A stretch of DNA of 58,198 nt, from assembly GCA_004295005.1 (NCBI GenBank), contig SHNG01000023.1:1-58198 (forward strand). Reading direction: 5' to 3'. The position numbers and the translations under genes were made by a program. The notes under the pieces are model-generated. The model was not told where the DNA came from, ran no database searches, and saw only the letters and a program-made list of their open reading frames with translations. The stretch comes from Gammaproteobacteria bacterium. GTDB lineage: Bacteria; Pseudomonadota; Gammaproteobacteria; Xanthomonadales; Rhodanobacteraceae. This document shows positions 17,357 through 26,064 of this stretch, piece after piece. Position 1 is the first letter of the stretch, and each line of letters starts with the position of its first letter.

Positions 17357-18439
17357 TCAACCATGCCGCCGTTCAAACTCGCGCATGAAGTCGACCAGCA
17401 CCTCGACGGCCTGGATCGGGGTTGCGTTGTAGATCGAGGCACGCATGCCGCCGAGTACGCGGTGTCCCTTGAGCCCGATCAGGTTCTCGGCATCGGCTTC
17501 CTTGAGGAACACCTGGTCGAGTCCGGCGTCGGCCAGGAAGAACGGCACGTTCATCAGCGAACGCGCCGTGGCATTTACCGGGTTGCTGTAGAAACCCGAT
17601 TCGTCGATGGTCCGGTACAGCAATTCGGCCTTGCGCCGGTTGCGTTCGGCCATCGCCGCCAGGCCGCCTTCGCCCTTGAGCCACTTGAATACCAGCGCAG
17701 ACAGATACCAGCCAAAGGTATTGGGCGTGTTGAACAGCGAATCGGCCTTCGCATGTTCCGCATACTTGAAGATGCGCGCGATTGGTTGCGGGCTGCGCTC
17801 CAGCAGGTCATCACGAACGATGAGGATCACCAGGCCGGATGCACCGATGTTCTTCTGCGCGCCCGCATAGATGATGCCGAAGCGGGAAACATCGATCGGT
17901 GCAGAAAGAATGTCCGAGGACATGTCGGCAACCAGCGGCACGGTTCCGACGTCGGGAATCTCATGGAACTGCACGCCATGGATCGTCTCGTTGGTGGTGT
18001 AGTGCACATAGGCCGCCTGCGCATCACGCTTCCAGTCCGTGCTGGCCGGCACGTCGCGGAAACCGCCCGCCGCGGAACTGGCACAAATGCGCGCCTGCAC
18101 GTGCGGCCCGGCTTCGGAAAACGCCTTCTCGCCCCATGCACCGCTGATCACGTAGTCGGCAGACTGATTCTGCCGAGCCAGGTTCATGGGTATCTGCGCG
18201 AAATGCTGGGTGGCACCGCCCTGCATGAACAGGACCCGATGGCTGGAGGGGATATCCAGCAACTGCCGAAGGTCGCTTTCGGATTCCCGCGCCAGCTCCA
18301 TGAATGCGGAGCCGCGATGGCTGATTTCCATCACCGAAGCACGCGCACTGCCCCATTCAAGCAATTCTTCACGGGCTTGCCGAAGCACGGCTTCCGGCAA
18401 GGCTGCCGGTCCGGCACTGAAGTTGAAGGCACGCGTCAC
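17357..18439 (-). CDS. serC: Phosphoserine aminotransferase
   Basis: A 360-residue PLP enzyme. The N-terminus FNFSAGPAALPEAVL is diagnostic of SerC, with MQGGATQHFAQIPMNL and the PLP lysine in YAGAQKNIGASGLVI. It makes phosphoserine from phosphohydroxypyruvate and also serves pyridoxal phosphate synthesis. It starts the aromatic block serC-pheA-hisC-aroA on the minus strand, as in the mixed-function supraoperon of pseudomonads. The FHA-domain gene ends 186 bases upstream. Confidence 0.96.
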   Translation of the reverse strand: MTRAFNFSAGPAALPEAVLRQAREELLEWGSARASVMEISHRGSAFMELARESESDLRQLLDIPSSHRVLFMQGGATQHFAQIPMNLARQNQSADYVISGAWGEKAFSEAGPHVQARICASSAAGGFRDVPASTDWKRDAQAAYVHYTTNETIHGVQFHEIPDVGTVPLVADMSSDILSAPIDVSRFGIIYAGAQKNIGASGLVILIVRDDLLERSPQPIARIFKYAEHAKADSLFNTPNTFGWYLSALVFKWLKGEGGLAAMAERNRRKAELLYRTIDESGFYSNPVNATARSLMNVPFFLADAGLDQVFLKEADAENLIGLKGHRVLGGMRASIYNATPIQAVEVLVDFMREFERRHG

Positions 18440-18625: not shown

Positions 18626-19453
18626 TCAGTAATTGCCGAACCAGAGCAGGCCGGCGATGCCGAGGCCGATGACACCCGCAGCCAGGATCAACCACCAGAT
18701 GCCCGAGCCATCATCTTCGGCTGCAGGTGCCACTGGATCGGCCATCTGGATGGCGTCCAGTGTCTGAGTGATGGAAGGCGCTTCGTTGCCCGGCGTGGGC
18801 ACGCCTTGCCCGCGTGCCGGGTAGCCCGGCGCCTCCAGCACGAATCGGTTGCGTCCGAACACCAGTTGGTCGCCCGGGTGCAGAACCGCATCGTGGACGC
18901 TGACGCCATTGACCTCGGTCCTGCCGGATGGCTCCAGGTTCCTCAGATGGATGGCGTCGCTGGATACCACCAATACCGCGTTTTGCGCCGATGAATCGGG
19001 GTCATCCAGCCCGAGTCCACCGCGATCGCTTCCAATCAGCAGGCGTGCGCCCACGCTGATGGTCTTGCCGAAATGGGCCCCAGACAGGCCACGCAGCACC
19101 ACGCGGGAAACCTCGTTGCCCGGCATGCCTTCGGATTGACCGGTGGGAACGCGGGTATCGATGATGGCATCGTGGTCCGGCTTCAGGACCGCGGCCACCG
19201 CATCAAAGTTGACGACATCCCCCAGCCTGAGCAGGGCACGTTCCTGAATCGGCCTGGCATTGACGTGGGTTCGCGCCTGCGGATCCAGCACCTCAAGGAT
19301 CATGCCGCGCTTGTCGATGACAATCCGCGCATGCCAGGGAGCGACTCCCGCGGCCCCCAGCACGATGGTATTGCCCTGTGCCGACCCGATCCCGGTGACG
19401 CCGTTGTCGACGATCACGTCAGCATGCTCCCCGTTGGAAAAGCTCAGACGCAT
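18626..19453 (-). CDS. Membrane-anchored protein with two FHA domains
   Basis: A 275-residue protein. Two FHA-like modules are visible, about residues 15-95 (HARIVI, HVNARPIQERALLRLGD) and 115-210 (LIGSDRGGLGLDDPDSSAQNAVLVV, GRTEVNGVSVHDAVLHPGDQLVFGRNRFVL). An acidic linker and one C-terminal membrane helix follow (IWWLILAAGVIGLGIAGLLWFG). FHA domains bind phosphothreonine peptides. The first module is degenerate and lacks a clear GRxxxN core. No kinase, phosphatase or type VI secretion gene is near in this window, so the partner is unknown. It could be co-transcribed with serC. Confidence 0.78.
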   Translation of the reverse strand: MRLSFSNGEHADVIVDNGVTGIGSAQGNTIVLGAAGVAPWHARIVIDKRGMILEVLDPQARTHVNARPIQERALLRLGDVVNFDAVAAVLKPDHDAIIDTRVPTGQSEGMPGNEVSRVVLRGLSGAHFGKTISVGARLLIGSDRGGLGLDDPDSSAQNAVLVVSSDAIHLRNLEPSGRTEVNGVSVHDAVLHPGDQLVFGRNRFVLEAPGYPARGQGVPTPGNEAPSITQTLDAIQMADPVAPAAEDDGSGIWWLILAAGVIGLGIAGLLWFGNY

Positions 19454-19761: not shown

Positions 19762-20037
19762 ATGGCGACAATCGATATCCGCAGGAAGCATTCCTTGTCC
19801 ATGGCCGAGGCACGCAAGGCGGTCAACAAGCTGGCCAAGTCCATTGCCAAGGAATTCGATCTCGAGTACGACTGGGATGGCAACACCCTGGCGTTCTCGC
19901 GAAGCGGCGTCGATGGGCACATTGCACTGGAGAAGGGCGAGGTCCATGTCTACGCGCAACTCGGCTTCCTCATGGGCATGATGAAGCCGATGATCGAAGG
20001 CGAGATTCATCGCCATCTCGACGAGCAGATTGGCTGA
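19762..20037 (+). CDS. Polyhydroxyalkanoic acid system family protein
   Basis: A 91-residue protein beginning MATIDIRRKHSLSMAEARKAV. The pattern (short N-terminal strand, a KAVNKLAKSIAKEF helix, then FDLEYDWDGNTLAFSRSGVDGHIALEKGEVHVYAQLGFL) fits the small putative PHA granule-region family found beside phasins in Xanthomonadaceae. Its biochemical role is unknown. The TGA stop shares its A with the ATG of the patatin gene (TGATG), so the two are translationally coupled. The recognition is from memory of the family, not a search. Confidence 0.75.
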   Translation: MATIDIRRKHSLSMAEARKAVNKLAKSIAKEFDLEYDWDGNTLAFSRSGVDGHIALEKGEVHVYAQLGFLMGMMKPMIEGEIHRHLDEQIG

Positions 20038-21341
20038 TGCTGGTTGTCAAATCCTCGGCGCAGGCGCGCCAGAAACACTCGCCTTCGCGCATCGGGCTTG
20101 CCGTTGCAGGTGGCGGTCCGGTGGGTGGCATTTTCGAGATCGGTGCCGTGCGTGCCCTCGATGATGCACTCGATGGACTCGACATGCATGCCCTGGACAT
20201 CTACGTGGGCATCAGCTCGGGAGCTTTCGTTGCAGCCAGCCTGGCCAATCGCCTGAGCACCGCCGAGTTGTGCCGCATTTTCATCACCGGCGATTCGGAC
20301 CAGTTCCAGTTTCGCGCCGAGGATTTCATCCGTCCGGCCATCTACGAATACCTGCAACGATTGGCCGGGGTTCCCCGCATGCTGGCAACCGCGCTGGCGG
20401 ATTTCGCGCGCCACCCGCTCGACCTCAGCATTTCCGACAGCCTGATGCGCCTGGGCAGCATTCTTCCGACCGGGCTGTTCGACAACTCCGCGATCGAGCG
20501 ATTCCTGCGCAAGGCCTACAGCTCGCATGGCCGCAGCAATGATTTCCGCGAGCTGGCCAGCAAACTGATCATCGTTGCCGTCGAACTGGAAAGTGGCCAG
20601 ACGGTACGCTTTGGAACCAGCGGGCATGACGGCGTGCCGATTTCACGCGCAATCGAGGCGAGCTCTGCCCTGCCCGGCCTCTACCCGCCCGTGCAGATCG
20701 ACGGCAAGCATTATGTGGACGGCGCGCTGCGCCATACCGTGCATGCCTCGGTGGCTTTGGATTCGGGTGCGGATCTGGTGCTGGCGATCAATCCATTGGT
20801 TCCCATCAACACCGTGCACGCGAAATCCCAAGGCAAGGCCAGTTCCCCCAACGTGGTTGACGGCGGTTTGCCCGCGGTCCTGTCACAGATGTTCCGCACC
20901 CTGCTGGAATCGCGGATGCAGACCAGCATTCCTCGATACGAACGCACCTACCCGGGTTCCGACTTGATGCTGTTGCAGCCGGACACCGACGACACCGACA
21001 TGTTCTTCACCAATATTTTCAGTTTTTCGCATCGGAAGCGGCTCGCGGAACACGCCTACCAGTCGACCTTGCGCGACCTGCGCATGCACCGCAAGACGCT
21101 CAAACCCTTGCTGGCGCGCCACGGCATCTCGCTGCGCGACAAGGTCCTCGACGATCCAGAGCGCACCCTGCTGGGCACGCTGACCGACAAGCCTCCGCGC
21201 CGCTCGAAGGTCACCTCCCATTTGCATCGGGCGCTGGATGATCTTGATCGGGCCCTTTCCGGCGAGACACCCGCCAAGTCTCCGCCAAGCCGCGAGGCGC
21301 CGCTCAGGCGACGCCCCGCACGCGCCAAGGCACGTGTCTGA
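20037..21341 (+). CDS. Patatin-like phospholipase
   Basis: A 434-residue patatin-fold hydrolase with the whole catalytic set: oxyanion loop AGGGPVGG (about residues 25-31), nucleophile Ser60 in GISSG, and the dyad Asp228 in YVDGALRH. Such enzymes cleave acyl esters of phospholipids or storage lipids. No signal peptide is seen, so it should act in the cytoplasm, possibly on granules. The basic tail after about residue 395 (RRSKVTSHLHRALDD onward) is probably disordered. It is coupled to the upstream PHA-system gene, and a phasin follows 89 bases later, so a storage-lipid role is likely but inferred. Confidence 0.88.
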   Translation: MLVVKSSAQARQKHSPSRIGLAVAGGGPVGGIFEIGAVRALDDALDGLDMHALDIYVGISSGAFVAASLANRLSTAELCRIFITGDSDQFQFRAEDFIRPAIYEYLQRLAGVPRMLATALADFARHPLDLSISDSLMRLGSILPTGLFDNSAIERFLRKAYSSHGRSNDFRELASKLIIVAVELESGQTVRFGTSGHDGVPISRAIEASSALPGLYPPVQIDGKHYVDGALRHTVHASVALDSGADLVLAINPLVPINTVHAKSQGKASSPNVVDGGLPAVLSQMFRTLLESRMQTSIPRYERTYPGSDLMLLQPDTDDTDMFFTNIFSFSHRKRLAEHAYQSTLRDLRMHRKTLKPLLARHGISLRDKVLDDPERTLLGTLTDKPPRRSKVTSHLHRALDDLDRALSGETPAKSPPSREAPLRRRPARAKARV

Positions 21342-21430
21342 TCCGCCTCCATCGATTGCTTGCTCTACTTTCCAACCCTAGCCTGTGCCGCGACAACCAC
21401 CTGTTCCACCAAATCCCAAAGGAAAACGCC

Positions 21431-22078
21431 ATGACCAAGCCGAAGCCCAAGCTCAAATCCAAGCCTGCTGCAGCCACGGCGACCAGCCCGAAGGCAAGCG
21501 GTGGCAAGTCCATTGTCGAATCCGCCCAGCACATCTGGCTGGCGGGACTCGGGGCGTTTGCCAAGGCCCAGGACGAAGGCACCCGCCTGTTCGAAGCCCT
21601 GGTGCGCGAAGGCGTATCCCTTGAACAAAAGACCCGCAAGCTGACCACCGGCAAGGCCGAGGAAGCGCGGGTTGCGATGGAAGCGGCGGTTGGCCAGGTC
21701 AAGGAGCGCAGCCAGGAAACCTGGGACAAGCTTGAGAAGGTCTTCGAGAACCGCGTATCACGCGCACTCAATGCACTGGGCGTTCCCGGCAGCACCGAAC
21801 TGAAGTCCCTCACTGCCCGCGTGGAGGAACTTGCCCGCGAAGTGCACAAGCTGAATGCCAAATCCGCACCCAAGGTGGCAAGCAAACCCGCCGCGGCGCA
21901 TTCGGTGCGACGCATCAAGGATGAACTGGCGGATGTCGCCCGTGAGCTGGAGTCCGAACAACTCAGGCAGGTAAACGCAAAGCGGCCGGGAGCATCCGCC
22001 AAGGCCGCGTCGAAAAAACCGGCAGCGAAGAAACCCGCAGCCGGAAAGTCGGGCGCAAAGAAGAAGGCTGCCCGCTAA
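21431..22078 (+). CDS. Phasin-like granule-associated protein with a Lys/Ala-rich tail
   Basis: A 215-residue protein of the poly(hydroxyalkanoate) granule-associated (PhaF/PhaI-type) family. An amphipathic region (SIVESAQHIWLAGLGAFAKAQDEGTRLFEALVREG) should bind the granule surface. A coiled segment follows (residues about 70-140), and then a Lys/Ala/Pro-rich tail of the AAKKPAAGK type, which in PhaF binds DNA nonspecifically. AAAGGAAAACGCC precedes the ATG at 21431. In PhaF this architecture ties granules to the nucleoid for even segregation; the same is inferred here. A second, tail-less phasin lies at 25672-26064. Confidence 0.87.
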   Translation: MTKPKPKLKSKPAAATATSPKASGGKSIVESAQHIWLAGLGAFAKAQDEGTRLFEALVREGVSLEQKTRKLTTGKAEEARVAMEAAVGQVKERSQETWDKLEKVFENRVSRALNALGVPGSTELKSLTARVEELAREVHKLNAKSAPKVASKPAAAHSVRRIKDELADVARELESEQLRQVNAKRPGASAKAASKKPAAKKPAAGKSGAKKKAAR

Positions 22079-22530
22079 GGAAACTCTGATCTTGCTCGTC
22101 AACCCGGAATCGCGAAGCGATATCCGGACCTGCGAAGGCATGGATGCCGAAGCGGAACGCCGCAGGCGGCCCGGAGGGCGAACGCCGGGAGGCGTGAGTC
22201 ATCCAGTGCCTTTGCACTTCAATGGGTTGAAAAAAGTCACTGGGTTCCCGCCTTCGCGGGAACGGCAAAGATTGGGATTAATCAGAGTTTCCCTAAGGAA
22301 ACTCTGAACAAGTACGAAACCCATTCGTCGCGAGCAAGCTCGCTCCCACAAAAGCAGGCAATGGTGGGAGCGAGCTTGCTCGCGACAATACATTGTTCAG
22401 ACCTTCCCTGAGACCTGAACCATCAACACCAGGAAGCCTTCCGCTTCCCGGGCACCATGATCCGGCCCGTCGCATGTCCTCGCGGCGGGCGTTTTCCATT
22501 GCACCTTGCGCGGCGCATTCATTGGGAAAA
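22079..22530. repeat. Composite dispersed repeat, copy 2, and spacer
   Basis: A non-coding spacer between converging genes. From 22115 it repeats the window's first bases, with about 93 identical at the start and imperfect similarity afterwards. A palindrome CCCGGAATCGCGAAGCGATATCCGG lies at 22103-22127. A longer one has two perfect 23-base arms at 22327-22349 and 22364-22386. A shorter relative of the first palindrome recurs at 37071-37130. The REP hairpins may also end transcription of the convergent phasin and reductase genes. Confidence 0.85.
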
Positions 22531-24525
22531 TCACCAGTGCACGCCACGCATGAGCGCGGCAAACGCCACCTGCTCCGATGATGCACCCTGCTGCTGTTCC
22601 TGGCGCACGCCCTTGATGCCCTTGGCGGCCGGCGAGTCGGGGAACAGGCGGAATGCCGTGTTCATAACGATCTCGTACGCACGCGGTGCAATGGCGTAGA
22701 ACAATTGCGCGAACACACCCGTGCGCGTGGCGACACGCACCGGCCGCTCGATGATGGCTTCGACCACAAGATCGGCGGCCTCCTCGGGGCTCAGGGTGGG
22801 AACCGAGTCGTACATCTTGGTCGGCGCGATCATCGGCGTCTTCACCAGCGGCATGTTGATGGTGGTGAAATTGATGCCCTGGTCCGAGAACTCGGCCTGC
22901 GCGCACCGCGAGAACGCATCGAGCGCCGCCTTCGATGAGACATAAGCGGAGAAGCGCGGCGCATTGGTGAGCACGCCGATCGAGGAAATATTGATGATGT
23001 GGCCGCGATGACGTTCGGCCATGCGCGGCAGAAAGCCCATGATCAGGCGCAGCGAGCCGAAGTAGTTGAGCTGCATGGTGCGTTCGAAGTCATGGAAGCG
23101 GTCGTAGCTGGATGCAATGGCCCGCCGGATCGAGCGCCCGGCGTTGTTGATCAGGATGTCTGCCCCGCCGTGCTCGGCGCTCACCTTGGCGACGAACTCG
23201 TCGCAGGAAGCAAGATCCGCCAGGTCCACCTTGTAGGCATGACAAGTGCCTCCGGCTGCTTCAATCTCCGCCTTGGTCGCCGCCAGCTCGTCTTCGCCAC
23301 GCGCGCAAACGATCACCTTGGCACCGGCTGCCGCAACCTTCAACGCAACCGCCCTGCCAATACCGGATGATCCACCGGTGACCACCACAACCTTCCTGCG
23401 AACCTTGCCGGACAGCGAGCGATCAACAAACAGCGCCGGGTCAAGGTGGCGCTCCCAGTAGTCCCAGATCCGCCAAGCATAACCCTTGAGATCCGGAAAC
23501 TTGAGTTTTGATCCACGCAGGGCGCGCTCGCATTCGCGCGTGTCGAATCGGGTCGGATAATTGATCATGCGCATGACTTCGGACGGAATGCCGAAATCGC
23601 GCAGGAACGTGTTGATCATGCGCCGCACCGGCGGCAGGTTGGACAGCGCCTGCCTGACCGCCGATGGCACGAAGGCAAACATGCGCGCATCAATGCGCAT
23701 GCTCATTTTCGGAGCATGGCCGGCATCGGCAAAAATGTTGAGTACCTCGCCAATCCGTCGCGGAGCGGGGTCAACCAGATGGAAGCAGCGGCTGTCCAGC
23801 TTGGCTACGTGGGCAATGTGGTCGAGGGCGGCTGCCACCCAGTCCACCGGCACCAGGTTCAGGCGTCCACCTTCCAGGCCAACCGTCGGTACCCACGGCG
23901 GCAACACCTCGCGCATGCGCTTGATCAGGCCGAACAGGTAATACGGTCCATCGATCTTGTCCATTTCCCCCGTTTTCGAATTGCCGATGACGATACCGGG
24001 GCGATAGATGCGGAAGGGACGCGTGCATTCCTTGCGCACAATGCCTTCGGACTCGTGCTTGGTCCTGAAATACACGTTGTCGAGTCCTTCAGCCTCGTCG
24101 AACATGTCTTCGCGGAACACTCCCGGATACATACCTGCTGCGGCAATCGAACTGACGTGATGGAAGCAACCGGCCTTGATCGCCTCGGCAACCTGTACCG
24201 CGTGCCGGGTGCCGTCGATGTTGGCGCTCACCTGGCTGGCTTCATCGGCGGAAAGGTCGTAGAGCGCCGCCAGATGGAAGAAATGCGAGATCTTGCCGCT
24301 CATGCTCTTCAGTGATGCCGGGGCAATGCCAAGGCGTGCCTTGCCAAGATCGCCGTTGACCGCCACCAGCCGATCCTTGTCCGCCCCCAGGCGTTCGCGC
24401 AGCGCCTCGAACTTGCCCAGCGATTCCTTGCGCACCAGGCAATAGATCTTGCCCTTGCGCAGCAACAGCTTCTCCAGCAGGTGACGCCCGATGAAGCCGG
24501 TGGCGCCCGTCACGAAGTACGTCAT
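22531..24525 (-). CDS. Fused fatty acyl-CoA reductase (alcohol-forming), two SDR domains
   Basis: A 664-residue protein with two NAD(P)H-binding SDR halves. The N-terminal half (VTGATGFIGRHLLEKLL near residue 5, FRTKHESE with the YxxxK motif) is of the male-sterility/NAD_binding_4 type. The C-terminal half (VVVTGGSSGIGRAVAL near residue 385, NNAGRSIRR, YVSSKAALDAF) is of the Acr1 type. Length, domain order and segments such as FERTMQLNYFGSLRLIMGF closely match the Marinobacter alcohol-forming acyl-CoA reductase as I recall it, which turns acyl-CoA or acyl-ACP into fatty alcohol for wax esters. AGGAGGGG precedes the start. It is divergent from the acyl-CoA-binding protein gene. No wax synthase is in view. 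Confidence 0.88.
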   Translation of the reverse strand: MTYFVTGATGFIGRHLLEKLLLRKGKIYCLVRKESLGKFEALRERLGADKDRLVAVNGDLGKARLGIAPASLKSMSGKISHFFHLAALYDLSADEASQVSANIDGTRHAVQVAEAIKAGCFHHVSSIAAAGMYPGVFREDMFDEAEGLDNVYFRTKHESEGIVRKECTRPFRIYRPGIVIGNSKTGEMDKIDGPYYLFGLIKRMREVLPPWVPTVGLEGGRLNLVPVDWVAAALDHIAHVAKLDSRCFHLVDPAPRRIGEVLNIFADAGHAPKMSMRIDARMFAFVPSAVRQALSNLPPVRRMINTFLRDFGIPSEVMRMINYPTRFDTRECERALRGSKLKFPDLKGYAWRIWDYWERHLDPALFVDRSLSGKVRRKVVVVTGGSSGIGRAVALKVAAAGAKVIVCARGEDELAATKAEIEAAGGTCHAYKVDLADLASCDEFVAKVSAEHGGADILINNAGRSIRRAIASSYDRFHDFERTMQLNYFGSLRLIMGFLPRMAERHRGHIINISSIGVLTNAPRFSAYVSSKAALDAFSRCAQAEFSDQGINFTTINMPLVKTPMIAPTKMYDSVPTLSPEEAADLVVEAIIERPVRVATRTGVFAQLFYAIAPRAYEIVMNTAFRLFPDSPAAKGIKGVRQEQQQGASSEQVAFAALMRGVHW

Positions 24526-24633
24526 TTACCCCTCCTGTCCCGATGCATTGGAGCGCAAGCCACGCTCTTCAAAGTCGAATTCGCAAACAGCATAGTCGTC
24601 TCACTCCCACCTTGCCACGCAAGTCTGACCGCG

Positions 24634-24662
24634 TTGACCGTCCATGGGGGCCGTGATAGAAC
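24634..24662 (+). promoter_or_regulatory. Sigma-70-like promoter of the ACBP-tetR operon
   Basis: TTGACC (24634-24639) and TAGAAC (24657-24662) are separated by exactly 17 bases, 38 bases before the ACBP start. The hexamer TGACCG occurs twice, at 24626-24631 and 24635-24640, spaced 9 bases and overlapping the -35 box. It could be part of an operator for the co-transcribed TetR regulator; that is inference. Confidence 0.55.
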
Positions 24663-24700
24663 ATTGCGGCGCAGGGGCGCGATCAATCAGGCAAACATTC

Positions 24701-24958
24701 ATGTCCAAGCTACAAGCCAGCTTCGAAAAAGCCGCCGAAGATATCAAGAAGCTGTCCGAGCGCCCCGACAACGATACCTTGCTGAAACTCTACGCACTCT
24801 ACAAGCAGGGAGCCGACGGAGACGTTTCTGGCCCCAAGCCGGGATTCTTCGATTTCGTTGGCACCGCAAAGTACGAAGCCTGGAGCAAGCTCAAGGGCAC
24901 CGGCAAGGAAGAAGCCATGCAGAAGTACATCGATCTGGTGGCCAAGCTGCGCGCCTGA
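24701..24958 (+). CDS. Acyl-CoA-binding protein (ACBP)
   Basis: An 85-residue four-helix ACBP. Diagnostic segments are LKLYALYKQGADGD, PGFFDFVGTAKYEAWSKLKG and EEAMQKYIDLV, with the conserved Tyr, Lys and Trp that hold the CoA headgroup and acyl chain. ACBPs keep long-chain acyl-CoA soluble and deliver it to enzymes; they are common in eukaryotes and patchy in bacteria. The start is the ATG at 24701. It is divergent from the acyl-CoA reductase gene (175 bases between starts) and followed after 29 bases by a TetR regulator, so it probably supplies substrate to that reductase. Confidence 0.93.
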   Translation: MSKLQASFEKAAEDIKKLSERPDNDTLLKLYALYKQGADGDVSGPKPGFFDFVGTAKYEAWSKLKGTGKEEAMQKYIDLVAKLRA

Positions 24959-24987
24959 ATCCAGCGCCAGCGGACACGGGCCCATCG

Positions 24988-25620
24988 ATGGCGCGCCAGA
25001 CCCGATCCCTGATCCTGGAAACCGCCCTGGTGATGTTCAACACCCAGGGCGAACCCAACGTCACGACCAATCATATCGCCGACGAACTGGGAATCAGCCC
25101 GGGCAATCTCTACTACCACTACCGCAACAAGGACGACATCATCGGCCACCTGTTCGCGCGCTATGAGCAGCGCATCGACCAGGCACTTGTCACCCCCGAC
25201 GACCGCTTGCCGACGCTCGAAGACCTCTGGCTGCAGTTGCACCTGATCTTTGAATGCATGTGGGACTATCGATTTGTCTATCGCGACCTGATCGATATTC
25301 TCTCCCGCAATCGCAAGCTTCGCCTGCATTTTTCCCGCATCCTCAAGCGCGCGTCCAACAACGCGGCGGGCGTGCTGAAGGGCCTGGCGGCGGCCGGCAT
25401 GCTGCGCGCGAGTGCCGACGAGATTCGTGCCACCGCCGAGAACATCGTGCTGGTGGCCACCTTTTGGCTCAATTTCGACGCCGTGCGCCATGCCAAGCAG
25501 GAGTCCGGTCAACTGGACATCGGCCGTGGCATCCACCAGGTCATGATGCTGATTGCACCGTTCCTGCGTGACGCCGAACGCCTGCACCTGAATACCCTCG
25601 CTGCCGCCTATCTGCGCTGA
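24988..25620 (+). CDS. TetR/AcrR family transcriptional regulator
   Basis: A 210-residue regulator. The N-terminal helix-turn-helix (ARQTRSLILETALVMFNTQGEPNVTTNHIADELGISPGNLYYHYRNKDDII) is a textbook TetR DNA-binding domain. The C-terminal helical part (from about residue 75) would bind a ligand, plausibly an acyl-CoA given the neighbours. It lies 29 bases after the ACBP gene and is likely co-transcribed. I infer that it controls the divergent reductase/ACBP intergenic region. Confidence 0.92.
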   Translation: MARQTRSLILETALVMFNTQGEPNVTTNHIADELGISPGNLYYHYRNKDDIIGHLFARYEQRIDQALVTPDDRLPTLEDLWLQLHLIFECMWDYRFVYRDLIDILSRNRKLRLHFSRILKRASNNAAGVLKGLAAAGMLRASADEIRATAENIVLVATFWLNFDAVRHAKQESGQLDIGRGIHQVMMLIAPFLRDAERLHLNTLAAAYLR

Positions 25621-25627
25621 AACGAAA

Positions 25628-25650
25628 TGCGGCCGCGCGAGGCGGCCGCA
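25628..25650. terminator. Bidirectional hairpin between tetR and the minus-strand phasin
   Basis: A perfect 9-bp stem (25628-25636 with 25642-25650, TGCGGCCGC arm) with a 5-base loop lies between two convergent genes. On the minus strand it is followed by TTTCGTTT, a fair terminator for the phasin; the plus-strand tail is poor. Confidence 0.6.
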
Positions 25651-25671
25651 GTGGCAACACTTTCATCCCGC

Positions 25672-26064
25672 TTACTTGGCCGCGCGAAGCTGCCTGGAAA
25701 GCTTGTCGACGCGTGCGATCAGCGCGTCCACGTCGGCCTTGGACGGGATGCCCGCATAGCTCAGTGCACGGCCGACGCCCTGTTCGAAGCGCGATTCGAC
25801 TTCATCGCGCAAGGTCGTGACCCGCGCAAGCAGGGGTGCCACGCGCTGGTCGACCGCCTTCCGCAGCCCGCCGCCCAGTGATCGTCCAAACTTTCGGCTG
25901 CGCGCCTGGAACGACTGACCCTCGCTGATCATGCCTTCGAGCACGCTTTCAGCCTGCTTCTGAAGGATGGAAAGCGCGCCAAGGCTGGCAAGCCACACCT
26001 TGCGCATCGTCTCCTCGGGAAGGTGCTTTTTTTCCGCCTGGATCTTCTTCAATTGCTTGCCCAT
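25672..26064 (-). CDS. Phasin family protein
   Basis: A 130-residue phasin-like protein with an amphipathic helix region (MRKVWLASLGALSILQKQAESVLEGMISEGQSFQ) and a long predicted coiled coil ending VDALIARVDKLSRQLRAAK. It corresponds to the PhaI-type short granule protein and lacks the basic tail of the phasin at 21431. The two share an ALNALGVPG/ALSYAGIPS-type motif before the final coil, so they are paralogs. AGGAGA precedes the ATG at 26064. It is convergent with tetR. Confidence 0.85.
   Translation of the reverse strand: MGKQLKKIQAEKKHLPEETMRKVWLASLGALSILQKQAESVLEGMISEGQSFQARSRKFGRSLGGGLRKAVDQRVAPLLARVTTLRDEVESRFEQGVGRALSYAGIPSKADVDALIARVDKLSRQLRAAK

What the first reader, a model, noticed from the sequence alone, without database searches (positions are those of the whole stretch)
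19762..26064. Storage-lipid gene set combining phasins, a patatin lipase, an acyl-CoA reductase and ACBP
Seven genes in 6.3 kb cover granule coat (two phasin paralogs), hydrolysis (patatin, intact Ser/Asp dyad), acyl-CoA supply (ACBP), reduction to fatty alcohol (fused reductase) and control (TetR). No PHA synthase or wax synthase is present. This could be a wax-ester or alcohol-based lipid body system in a Xanthomonad-type genome, where phasins coat something other than PHA. The link between PHA-type coat proteins and a wax-ester-type reductase is what stands out.
Basis: partly seen in the sequence, partly recalled or inferred. Interest (0 to 1): 0.72.

Follow-up and report, generated by a model that had tools for sequence, protein, structure and literature searches.

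The report
Wax-ester gene cluster with phasin coats
A bacterial gene cluster that looks built to make, coat and reuse wax droplets carries coat proteins usually linked to bioplastic granules, and across related bacteria those coat proteins follow the wax genes more closely than the bioplastic genes.

Summary
The seven genes are real: a PHA_gran_rgn protein, a patatin, a large PF05597 phasin, a fused acyl-CoA reductase (PRK07201), an ACBP, a TetR and a small PF05597 phasin. The genome is a Dokdonella-like assembly. The wider idea gains support, however. In 151 genomes of the order, all 103 with the reductase also have WS/DGAT and a PF05597 phasin; of the other 48, one (67% complete) has WS/DGAT and 17 have a phasin. 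Sixty-two of the 103 show no PHA synthase (44 of these at least 95% complete). In several families WS/DGAT, phasin, TetR, ACBP and reductase are neighbours. Conversely, 22 of 38 genomes with PhaC but no reductase lack the phasin. Best reading: a conserved wax-ester (or wax-ester/TAG) locus whose phasins coat neutral-lipid bodies, possibly shared with PHA granules where both exist. A 2023 metagenome paper partly anticipates the co-location. No lipid chemistry or localisation was testable, and no structure could be predicted.

The parts
19762..20037 (+). PHA_gran_rgn (PF09650/TIGR02610) small protein, 91 aa; its last base is the first base of the patatin start codon
   Evidence: family found in 139 of 151 genomes of the order, 138 over cut-off
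20037..21341 (+). patatin-type lipase, 434 aa, GxSxG and DGA intact; proposed neutral-lipid hydrolase
   Evidence: relatives at E<=1e-40 in 91 of 103 reductase-bearing genomes and 1 of 48 others
21431..22078 (+). large PF05597 phasin, 215 aa, Lys/Ala-rich C-terminal tail (PhaF-like layout)
22531..24525 (-). fused acyl-CoA reductase, 664 aa: NAD_binding_4 + short-chain dehydrogenase (PRK07201)
24630..24662 (+). promoter-like element CGCG-TTGACC-N17-TAGAAC in the divergent gap before ACBP-tetR; recurrent in relatives
   Evidence: reverse form GGTCAA within 300 bp upstream of the reductase in 89 of 140 loci, no control run for this 6-base form; 10-base form GGTCAACGCG in 27 of 140, against 0 of 420 control stretches
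24701..24958 (+). acyl-CoA-binding protein, 85 aa
24985..25620 (+). TetR-type regulator (PF00440 + PF13972), 211 aa; proposed regulator of the divergent reductase and ACBP-tetR units
   Evidence: within 5 kb of the reductase in 49 of 54 titled and 61 of 66 unnamed testable loci
25672..26064 (-). small tail-less PF05597 phasin, 130 aa; sits on the side where other families have the WS/DGAT-adjacent phasin

Best explanation
This is the reductase/coat/mobilisation part of a wax-ester (possibly mixed wax-ester/TAG) storage locus that is widely shared in the order of Dokdonella. ACBP presents long-chain acyl-CoA; the fused reductase reduces it to fatty aldehyde and then fatty alcohol; a WS/DGAT, adjacent in several sister families and unlinked here (contig C118), joins the alcohol to another acyl-CoA; the PF05597 phasins coat the resulting lipid body, the large one probably tethering it to the nucleoid by its Lys/Ala tail; the patatin hydrolyses the stored ester; and the TetR controls the divergent promoter region, perhaps sensing acyl-CoA. 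Shown: the genes, their motifs, the conserved neighbourhood and the co-occurrence pattern. Inferred: the reactions, the coating role, the tethering and the regulation. In this genome, which also has class III PhaEC, the same phasins may serve PHA granules too.
For: Reductase and WS/DGAT: 103 genomes with both, 0 with reductase only, 1 with WS/DGAT only (G076, 67% complete), 47 with neither, of 151. Reductase and phasin: 103 both, 0 reductase only, 17 phasin only, 31 neither. PhaC and phasin are not positively associated: 57 both, 22 PhaC only, 63 phasin only, 9 neither. By genus (positive if any genome is): 46 of 46 reductase genera have WS/DGAT and phasin; of 18 others 0 have WS/DGAT and 5 have phasin. 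In the window's own family 5 of 5 reductase-bearing genomes have the phasin against 1 of 19 with PhaC and no reductase. 62 genomes have reductase, WS/DGAT and phasin but no detected PhaC, 44 of them at >=95% completeness, among them the single-contig G037 and G058 at 99%. TIGR01836 over cut-off in 0 of 62 (12 of 62 had weak matches, best 24.9 bits) against 547.2 and 551.2 bits in the two class III controls. Neighbourhood: in unnamed loci with 5 kb on both sides, a phasin lies within 5 kb of the reductase in 46 of 66 and WS/DGAT in 22 of 66; in the PhaC-less subset 22 of 38 and 14 of 38. Patatin follows the reductase: 91 of 103 against 1 of 48. Literature: the phasin PhaP1 associates with TAG inclusions when expressed in TAG-accumulating bacteria (PMC6273058, passage).
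Against: The genome also encodes PhaE and PhaC, so PHA is a possible cargo here. Sixteen of 38 PhaC-positive, reductase-negative genomes keep a phasin; the 15 of these 16 loci fetched keep phasin, FHA and the serC-like gene but show no patatin or reductase, so this phasin is not exclusive to wax esters. In family f9 (22 reductase-bearing genomes, no PhaC) no phasin lies within 5 kb of the reductase in 14 of 14 testable loci. Twelve of 103 reductase-bearing genomes lack a patatin relative at E<=1e-40. In this genome WS/DGAT is not in the cluster. The genomes are related and the Fisher tests ignore that. No lipid, enzyme or localisation data exist here for this strain.
Confidence: 0.68

Rival explanations
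1. The phasins, PHA_gran_rgn and patatin are PHA granule proteins of the class III PhaEC system, and the reductase-ACBP-TetR unit is an unrelated lipid gene set that happens to be next to them.
For: Own genome has PhaE and PhaC over cut-off; phasin and PHA_gran_rgn carry PHA family names; 16 of 38 PhaC-positive reductase-negative genomes keep the phasin.
Against: The phasin is present in 62 genomes without detected PhaC and absent in 22 of 38 with PhaC but no reductase; no patatin relative (E<=1e-40) in 37 of 38 PhaC-positive reductase-negative genomes, the exception being the WS/DGAT-positive G076; a phasin sits between WS/DGAT and the TetR-ACBP-reductase set in many loci.
Confidence: 0.12
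2. The phasins are general storage-inclusion coats shared by PHA granules and neutral-lipid bodies; the cluster is wax-ester related, but the coat is not specialised.
For: The phasin occurs with reductase/WS-DGAT and no PhaC (62 genomes), with both (41) and with PhaC but no reductase (16); PHA_gran_rgn is present in 60 of 62 PhaC-negative reductase-positive and 35 of 38 PhaC-positive reductase-negative genomes; PhaP1 can bind TAG inclusions heterologously (PMC6273058, passage).
Against: Of 19 PhaC-positive reductase-negative genomes of the own family only 1 has this phasin, so PHA alone does not maintain it there.
Confidence: 0.17
3. The reductase makes fatty alcohol or aldehyde for another product (for example a membrane or surface lipid) and WS/DGAT makes TAG.
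For: WS/DGAT enzymes are generally bifunctional (established knowledge, recalled); no product has been measured here.
Against: Reductase and WS/DGAT presence agree in 150 of 151 genomes, as expected if one feeds the other.
Confidence: 0.1

Closest known systems
Marinobacter wax-ester pathway (reductase MAQU_2507 + WS/DGAT)
   Same: [quoted passage not shown] That MAQU_2507 shares the fused architecture is inferred from that length. Here too the genome has a WS/DGAT.
   Different: Here the reductase is clustered with ACBP, TetR, phasins, patatin and PHA_gran_rgn. A direct comparison with MAQU_2507 was not made, its sequence not being at hand.
WS/DGAT gene neighbourhoods of Antarctic/Subantarctic sediment metagenomes (PLoS One 2023, PMC10351704)
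   Same: Section on Pseudomonadota read: betaproteobacterial scaffolds with WS/DGAT and ACBP, two of them with a reductase about 59% identical to MAQU_2507 and a polyhydroxyalkanoic acid system protein, another scaffold with a putative phasin; alphaproteobacterial scaffolds where WS/DGAT sits among PHA metabolism genes; a gammaproteobacterial scaffold with WS/DGAT beside such a reductase (61.9%).
   Different: In the text read there was no test of PhaC absence, no order-wide co-occurrence, no mention of patatin or TetR with these, and no coat hypothesis.
Pseudomonas PhaF/PhaI phasin pair
   Same: One member with a long basic C-terminal region and one without: PhaF has a DNA-binding C-terminal domain and PhaI resembles its N-terminal domain (PMC3574117, passages). 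That both are PF05597 is recalled.
   Different: Pseudomonas phasins belong to a PHA locus (recalled); these lie beside a wax-ester-type reductase and, in relatives, WS/DGAT.
Rhodococcus MLDS lipid-droplet protein
   Same: A major droplet protein that binds droplets to genomic DNA (PMC5504291, start of abstract in the listing); proposed analogue of the large phasin's role.
   Different: No relatedness tested; different organism.

Membership tests
Fused alcohol-forming acyl-CoA reductase (PRK07201 / MAQU_2507 type) | NAD_binding_4 domain followed by a short-chain dehydrogenase domain over about 660 aa | tested here: met
   PRK07201 977.2 bits over residues 1-664, cut-off 549; PF07993 and PF00106
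Fused alcohol-forming acyl-CoA reductase (PRK07201 / MAQU_2507 type) | Both cofactor motifs and both YxxxK motifs intact | tested here: met
   GATGFIG at 7, YFRTK at 152, TGGSSGIG at 383, YVSSK at 528; G7, G10, G13, Y152, K156, T383, G384, G388, G390, Y528 and K532 are invariant in the 25 aligned sequences
Fused alcohol-forming acyl-CoA reductase (PRK07201 / MAQU_2507 type) | Reduction of acyl-CoA to alcohol | not testable with these tools
   needs an enzyme assay; fold comparison not run because the structure queue was full
Fused alcohol-forming acyl-CoA reductase (PRK07201 / MAQU_2507 type) | Direct sequence match to MAQU_2507 | not tested
   sequence not at hand; no locus titled Marinobacter among the 80 kept
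PF05597 phasin | Match over the curated cut-off | tested here: met
   140.9 and 77.3 bits against 28.8; the small one is below the TIGR01837 cut-off (65 against 94.7)
PF05597 phasin | Located on PHA granules | not testable with these tools
   own genome has PhaEC; 62 of 151 genomes have phasin, reductase and WS/DGAT but no detected PhaC
WS/DGAT (own genome, contig C118) | TIGR02946 match over cut-off and HHxxxDG motif | tested here: met
   425 bits against 309.95; HHCYADG
Class III PHA synthase PhaEC (own genome, contig C26) | TIGR01836 and TIGR01834 over cut-off in adjacent genes | tested here: met
   547.7 against 365.3 and 173.1 against 154.95; adjacent ORFs in L001
Patatin lipase | GxSxG nucleophile elbow and DG[AG] | tested here: met
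   PF01734 98.2 bits against 27.7; GISSG at 58, DGA at 228

The most novel reading that the evidence does not exclude
In this order the PF05597 phasins, with PHA_gran_rgn and the linked patatin, are primarily coat and turnover proteins of wax-ester droplets, with a PhaF-like tail that ties droplets to the chromosome; their use on PHA granules is secondary or retained after loss of the wax-ester genes. 'Phasin' and 'PHA system protein' annotations would then be misleading for many genomes.
Probability: 0.45. Interest if true: 0.75.

Novelty: new variant of a known kind. Interest (0 to 1): 0.6.

Why it matters
Phasins are treated as PHA proteins, and one review says that bacterial lipid (e.g. 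[quoted passage not shown] A phasin that follows wax-ester genes across an order, in 62 genomes without a detected PHA synthase, gives a concrete candidate coat for wax droplets in these Proteobacteria, and natural test organisms. It also warns against reading phasin or PHA_gran_rgn genes as evidence of PHA storage.

Tried and rejected
Rejected: 'no PHA synthase or wax synthase' as a property of the organism. Rejected: a chance assembly of genes. Rejected: weak PF05597 hits near 1e-4 as phasins. In G000 that hit lies in the PhaE gene; the 11 genomes with only such hits were counted as lacking a phasin, which leaves the 120 of 151 genomes over the Pfam cut-off.

Counting choices: five genomes with split or partial reductases below the cut-off (G026, G038, G114, G123, G138) were counted as reductase-positive beside the 98 over cut-off. 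The PF07167 hit of G118 (17.9 bits, E 0.003) was not counted as PhaC. PhaC positive means own-PhaC search E<=1e-20 or PF07167 E<=0.01. Presence lists were copied by hand from the tables into the scripts; set sizes agree with the tool tallies (103 = 98 + 5, 104, 67, 74 = 75 - 1, 120, 92, 139). Neighbour counts within 5 kb use only loci with 5 kb on both sides: 54 of 80 titled and 66 of 99 unnamed.

No result: structure prediction of the reductase and of PHA_gran_rgn, so no fold search. The inverted-repeat search of the window's divergent gap gave one 9-base palindrome (24540-24551) and no repeat shared with the three relatives searched; the consensus promoter scan found 0 sites, although a recurrent promoter-like element shows. 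Paper searches 'phasin + acyl-CoA reductase + patatin' (1 paper, a plant genome by its title), 'Xanthomonadales + wax ester + wax synthase' (0) and 'phasin + without PHA synthase' (0) found no earlier description of the coat idea in that library; 'phasin + wax ester' (29 papers, 25 listed) gave the 2023 partial precedent; one search gave 2 papers and one search gave 278 (20 listed). Subscription papers are mostly not held.
Full report
Observation. In order: PHA_gran_rgn (19762-20037, +), patatin (20037-21341, +), large phasin (21431-22078, +), fused reductase (22531-24525, -), ACBP (24701-24958, +), TetR (24985-25620, +), small phasin (25672-26064, -). Catalytic motifs of patatin and reductase are intact. 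The flanks are an FHA protein (18626-19453) and a serC-like gene (17357-18439, named by recall) on one side, and ZipA and an SMC-like gene (named by recall) on the other.

Organism. The best relative with a record title, 98% identical in the reductase, is a Dokdonella MAG (L010). The window's own genome is a 3.47 Mb assembly in 197 contigs, 87% complete, 0.77% contaminated.

What is elsewhere in the genome. Contig C26 carries adjacent PhaE and class III PhaC, both over their NCBIfam cut-offs, and contig C118 carries a WS/DGAT with both Pfam domains, TIGR02946 over cut-off and the HHxxxDG motif. The premise that neither synthase exists is therefore wrong for the organism, though right for the window. 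Binning error could in principle have placed these contigs here, but every other reductase-bearing genome in the draw also has WS/DGAT.

Conservation of the neighbourhood. With 5 kb of sequence on both sides available, TetR lies within 5 kb of the reductase in 49 of 54 titled and 61 of 66 unnamed loci, ACBP in 49 of 54 and 61 of 66, a phasin in 49 of 54 and 46 of 66, patatin in 40 of 54 and 26 of 66, WS/DGAT in 6 of 54 and 22 of 66. The two sets overlap in part, since several contigs have equal lengths. The fullest arrangement is WS/DGAT, phasin, [TetR, ACBP reversed], reductase, [phasin, patatin, PHA_gran_rgn reversed], as in L105 and L151; other loci add FHA and the serC-like gene at the far end. 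In the Dokdonella loci ZipA and SMC occupy the side where WS/DGAT sits elsewhere, and the small phasin corresponds in position to the WS/DGAT-side phasin. Phasin and reductase are also neighbours in loci titled Chromatiales, Burkholderiales and Betaproteobacteria (L080, L081, L084), whereas the Hahella locus L082 shows none of the partners.

Co-occurrence. In a draw of 151 genomes of the order, 103 have the reductase, 104 WS/DGAT, 120 a PF05597 phasin over cut-off and 79 a PhaC by either of two searches. Reductase and WS/DGAT agree in 150 of 151; the exception is G076, 67% complete. All 103 reductase genomes have the phasin; 17 of 48 others do. PhaC and phasin show no positive association (57 both, 22 PhaC only, 63 phasin only, 9 neither). 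Collapsed to 64 genera, 46 reductase genera all have WS/DGAT and phasin, and of 18 others 0 have WS/DGAT and 5 have phasin. Among the 114 genomes at least 95% complete the reductase and WS/DGAT agree in 114.

PhaC-less genomes. Sixty-two genomes in 24 genera and seven families have reductase, WS/DGAT and phasin but no PhaC; 44 of these, in 17 genera, are at least 95% complete. They include the single-contig G037 and G058 (99%), where WS/DGAT, phasin and reductase matches lie within about 6 to 7 kb. TIGR01836 is over cut-off in none of the 62; 12 of the 62 give weak matches (best 24.9 bits), while the class III controls G000 and G031 score 547.2 and 551.2 and the class I control G044 147.8. Within this subset a phasin lies within 5 kb of the reductase in 22 of 38 testable loci and WS/DGAT in 14 of 38.

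Results against. Sixteen of 38 PhaC-positive, reductase-negative genomes keep the phasin. In 15 of these 16 loci, fetched, the phasin stays beside FHA and the serC-like gene, in 13 of 15 with PHA_gran_rgn, and none shows patatin or reductase. G106 (L195) still has a TetR about 2 kb from its phasin, and the region of the sixteenth, G031 (L185), has an ACBP on the same 20 kb; these look like relics of loss. In family f9, with no PhaC in 22 reductase genomes, no phasin lies within 5 kb of the reductase in 14 of 14 loci; of four f9 phasin loci examined, two (L201, L202) have a patatin next to it and two (L203, L204) show no other cluster gene. So the phasin is not strictly tied to wax esters, and may serve PHA where only PHA remains. 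Twelve of 103 reductase genomes lack a patatin relative at E<=1e-40. The genomes share ancestry, so counts are not independent.

Mechanism. Steps inferred from families: ACBP supplies acyl-CoA; the fused reductase yields fatty alcohol, as reported for Marinobacter reductases without release of aldehyde, and for mycobacterial FCR1 with aldehyde and alcohol both seen (PMC3522743, passages); WS/DGAT makes the ester; phasins coat it; patatin degrades it; TetR regulates. The large phasin ends in a Lys/Ala-rich tail (10 K and 12 A in the last 45 residues), resembling in layout PhaF, whose C-terminal domain is described as DNA-binding, while PhaI resembles the N-terminal domain of PhaF (PMC3574117, passages); the small phasin has no such tail. 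A phasin can bind non-PHA lipid bodies: PhaP1 associates with TAG inclusions when expressed in TAG-accumulating bacteria (PMC6273058, passage, citing Hanisch 2006, not read). Solved structures matched by sequence are short-chain dehydrogenases for the C-terminal half and the MxaA chain 4u7w (E 1e-22) for the N-terminal half (best 60 of 626 shown).

Known work. PMC10351704 (one section and passages read) already reports, near WS/DGAT, ACBP, MAQU_2507-like reductases and a polyhydroxyalkanoic acid system protein, on another scaffold a phasin, and in Alphaproteobacteria PHA metabolism genes. The pairing is thus partly in print; the order-wide association, the PhaC-less cases and the coat reading were not found in the searches listed. 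The phasin review PMC5658603 (passages) has no occurrence of 'triacylglycer' or 'wax ester' in its main text, and lists PF05597 and PF09650 among phasin families.

Verdict. A real, widely conserved storage-lipid locus, best read as a wax-ester system with phasin coats; new variant of a known kind. Decisive evidence must come from lipid analysis and localisation.

Noticed in passing
19762-20037: PHA_gran_rgn (PF09650) is in 60 of 62 PhaC-negative reductase-positive genomes, 35 of 38 PhaC-positive reductase-negative ones and 3 of 10 with neither, so its family name seems too narrow.
   Followed up: partly
24630-24662: CGCG-TTGACC-N17-TAGAAC lies before ACBP-tetR; the reverse form GGTCAA lies within 300 bp upstream of the reductase in 89 of 140 loci (no control for this form), the 10-base form GGTCAACGCG in 27 of 140 and 0 of 420 control stretches.
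   Followed up: partly
L195 and L185: Genomes without the reductase keep single genes of the cluster (a TetR near the phasin in G106, an ACBP in the phasin region of G031), suggesting loss of an older full cluster.
   Followed up: no
L010:7805-7900: In the 98%-identical Dokdonella locus a G-rich stretch separates the GGTCAACGCG element from the reductase start, so that the element lies farther upstream than in the window; real divergence or assembly error.
   Followed up: no
L160, L166, L168-L171, L174: In family f9 one or two further short-chain dehydrogenase frames (matching the reductase profile at 168-196 bits) recur near the TetR-ACBP-reductase set.
   Followed up: no
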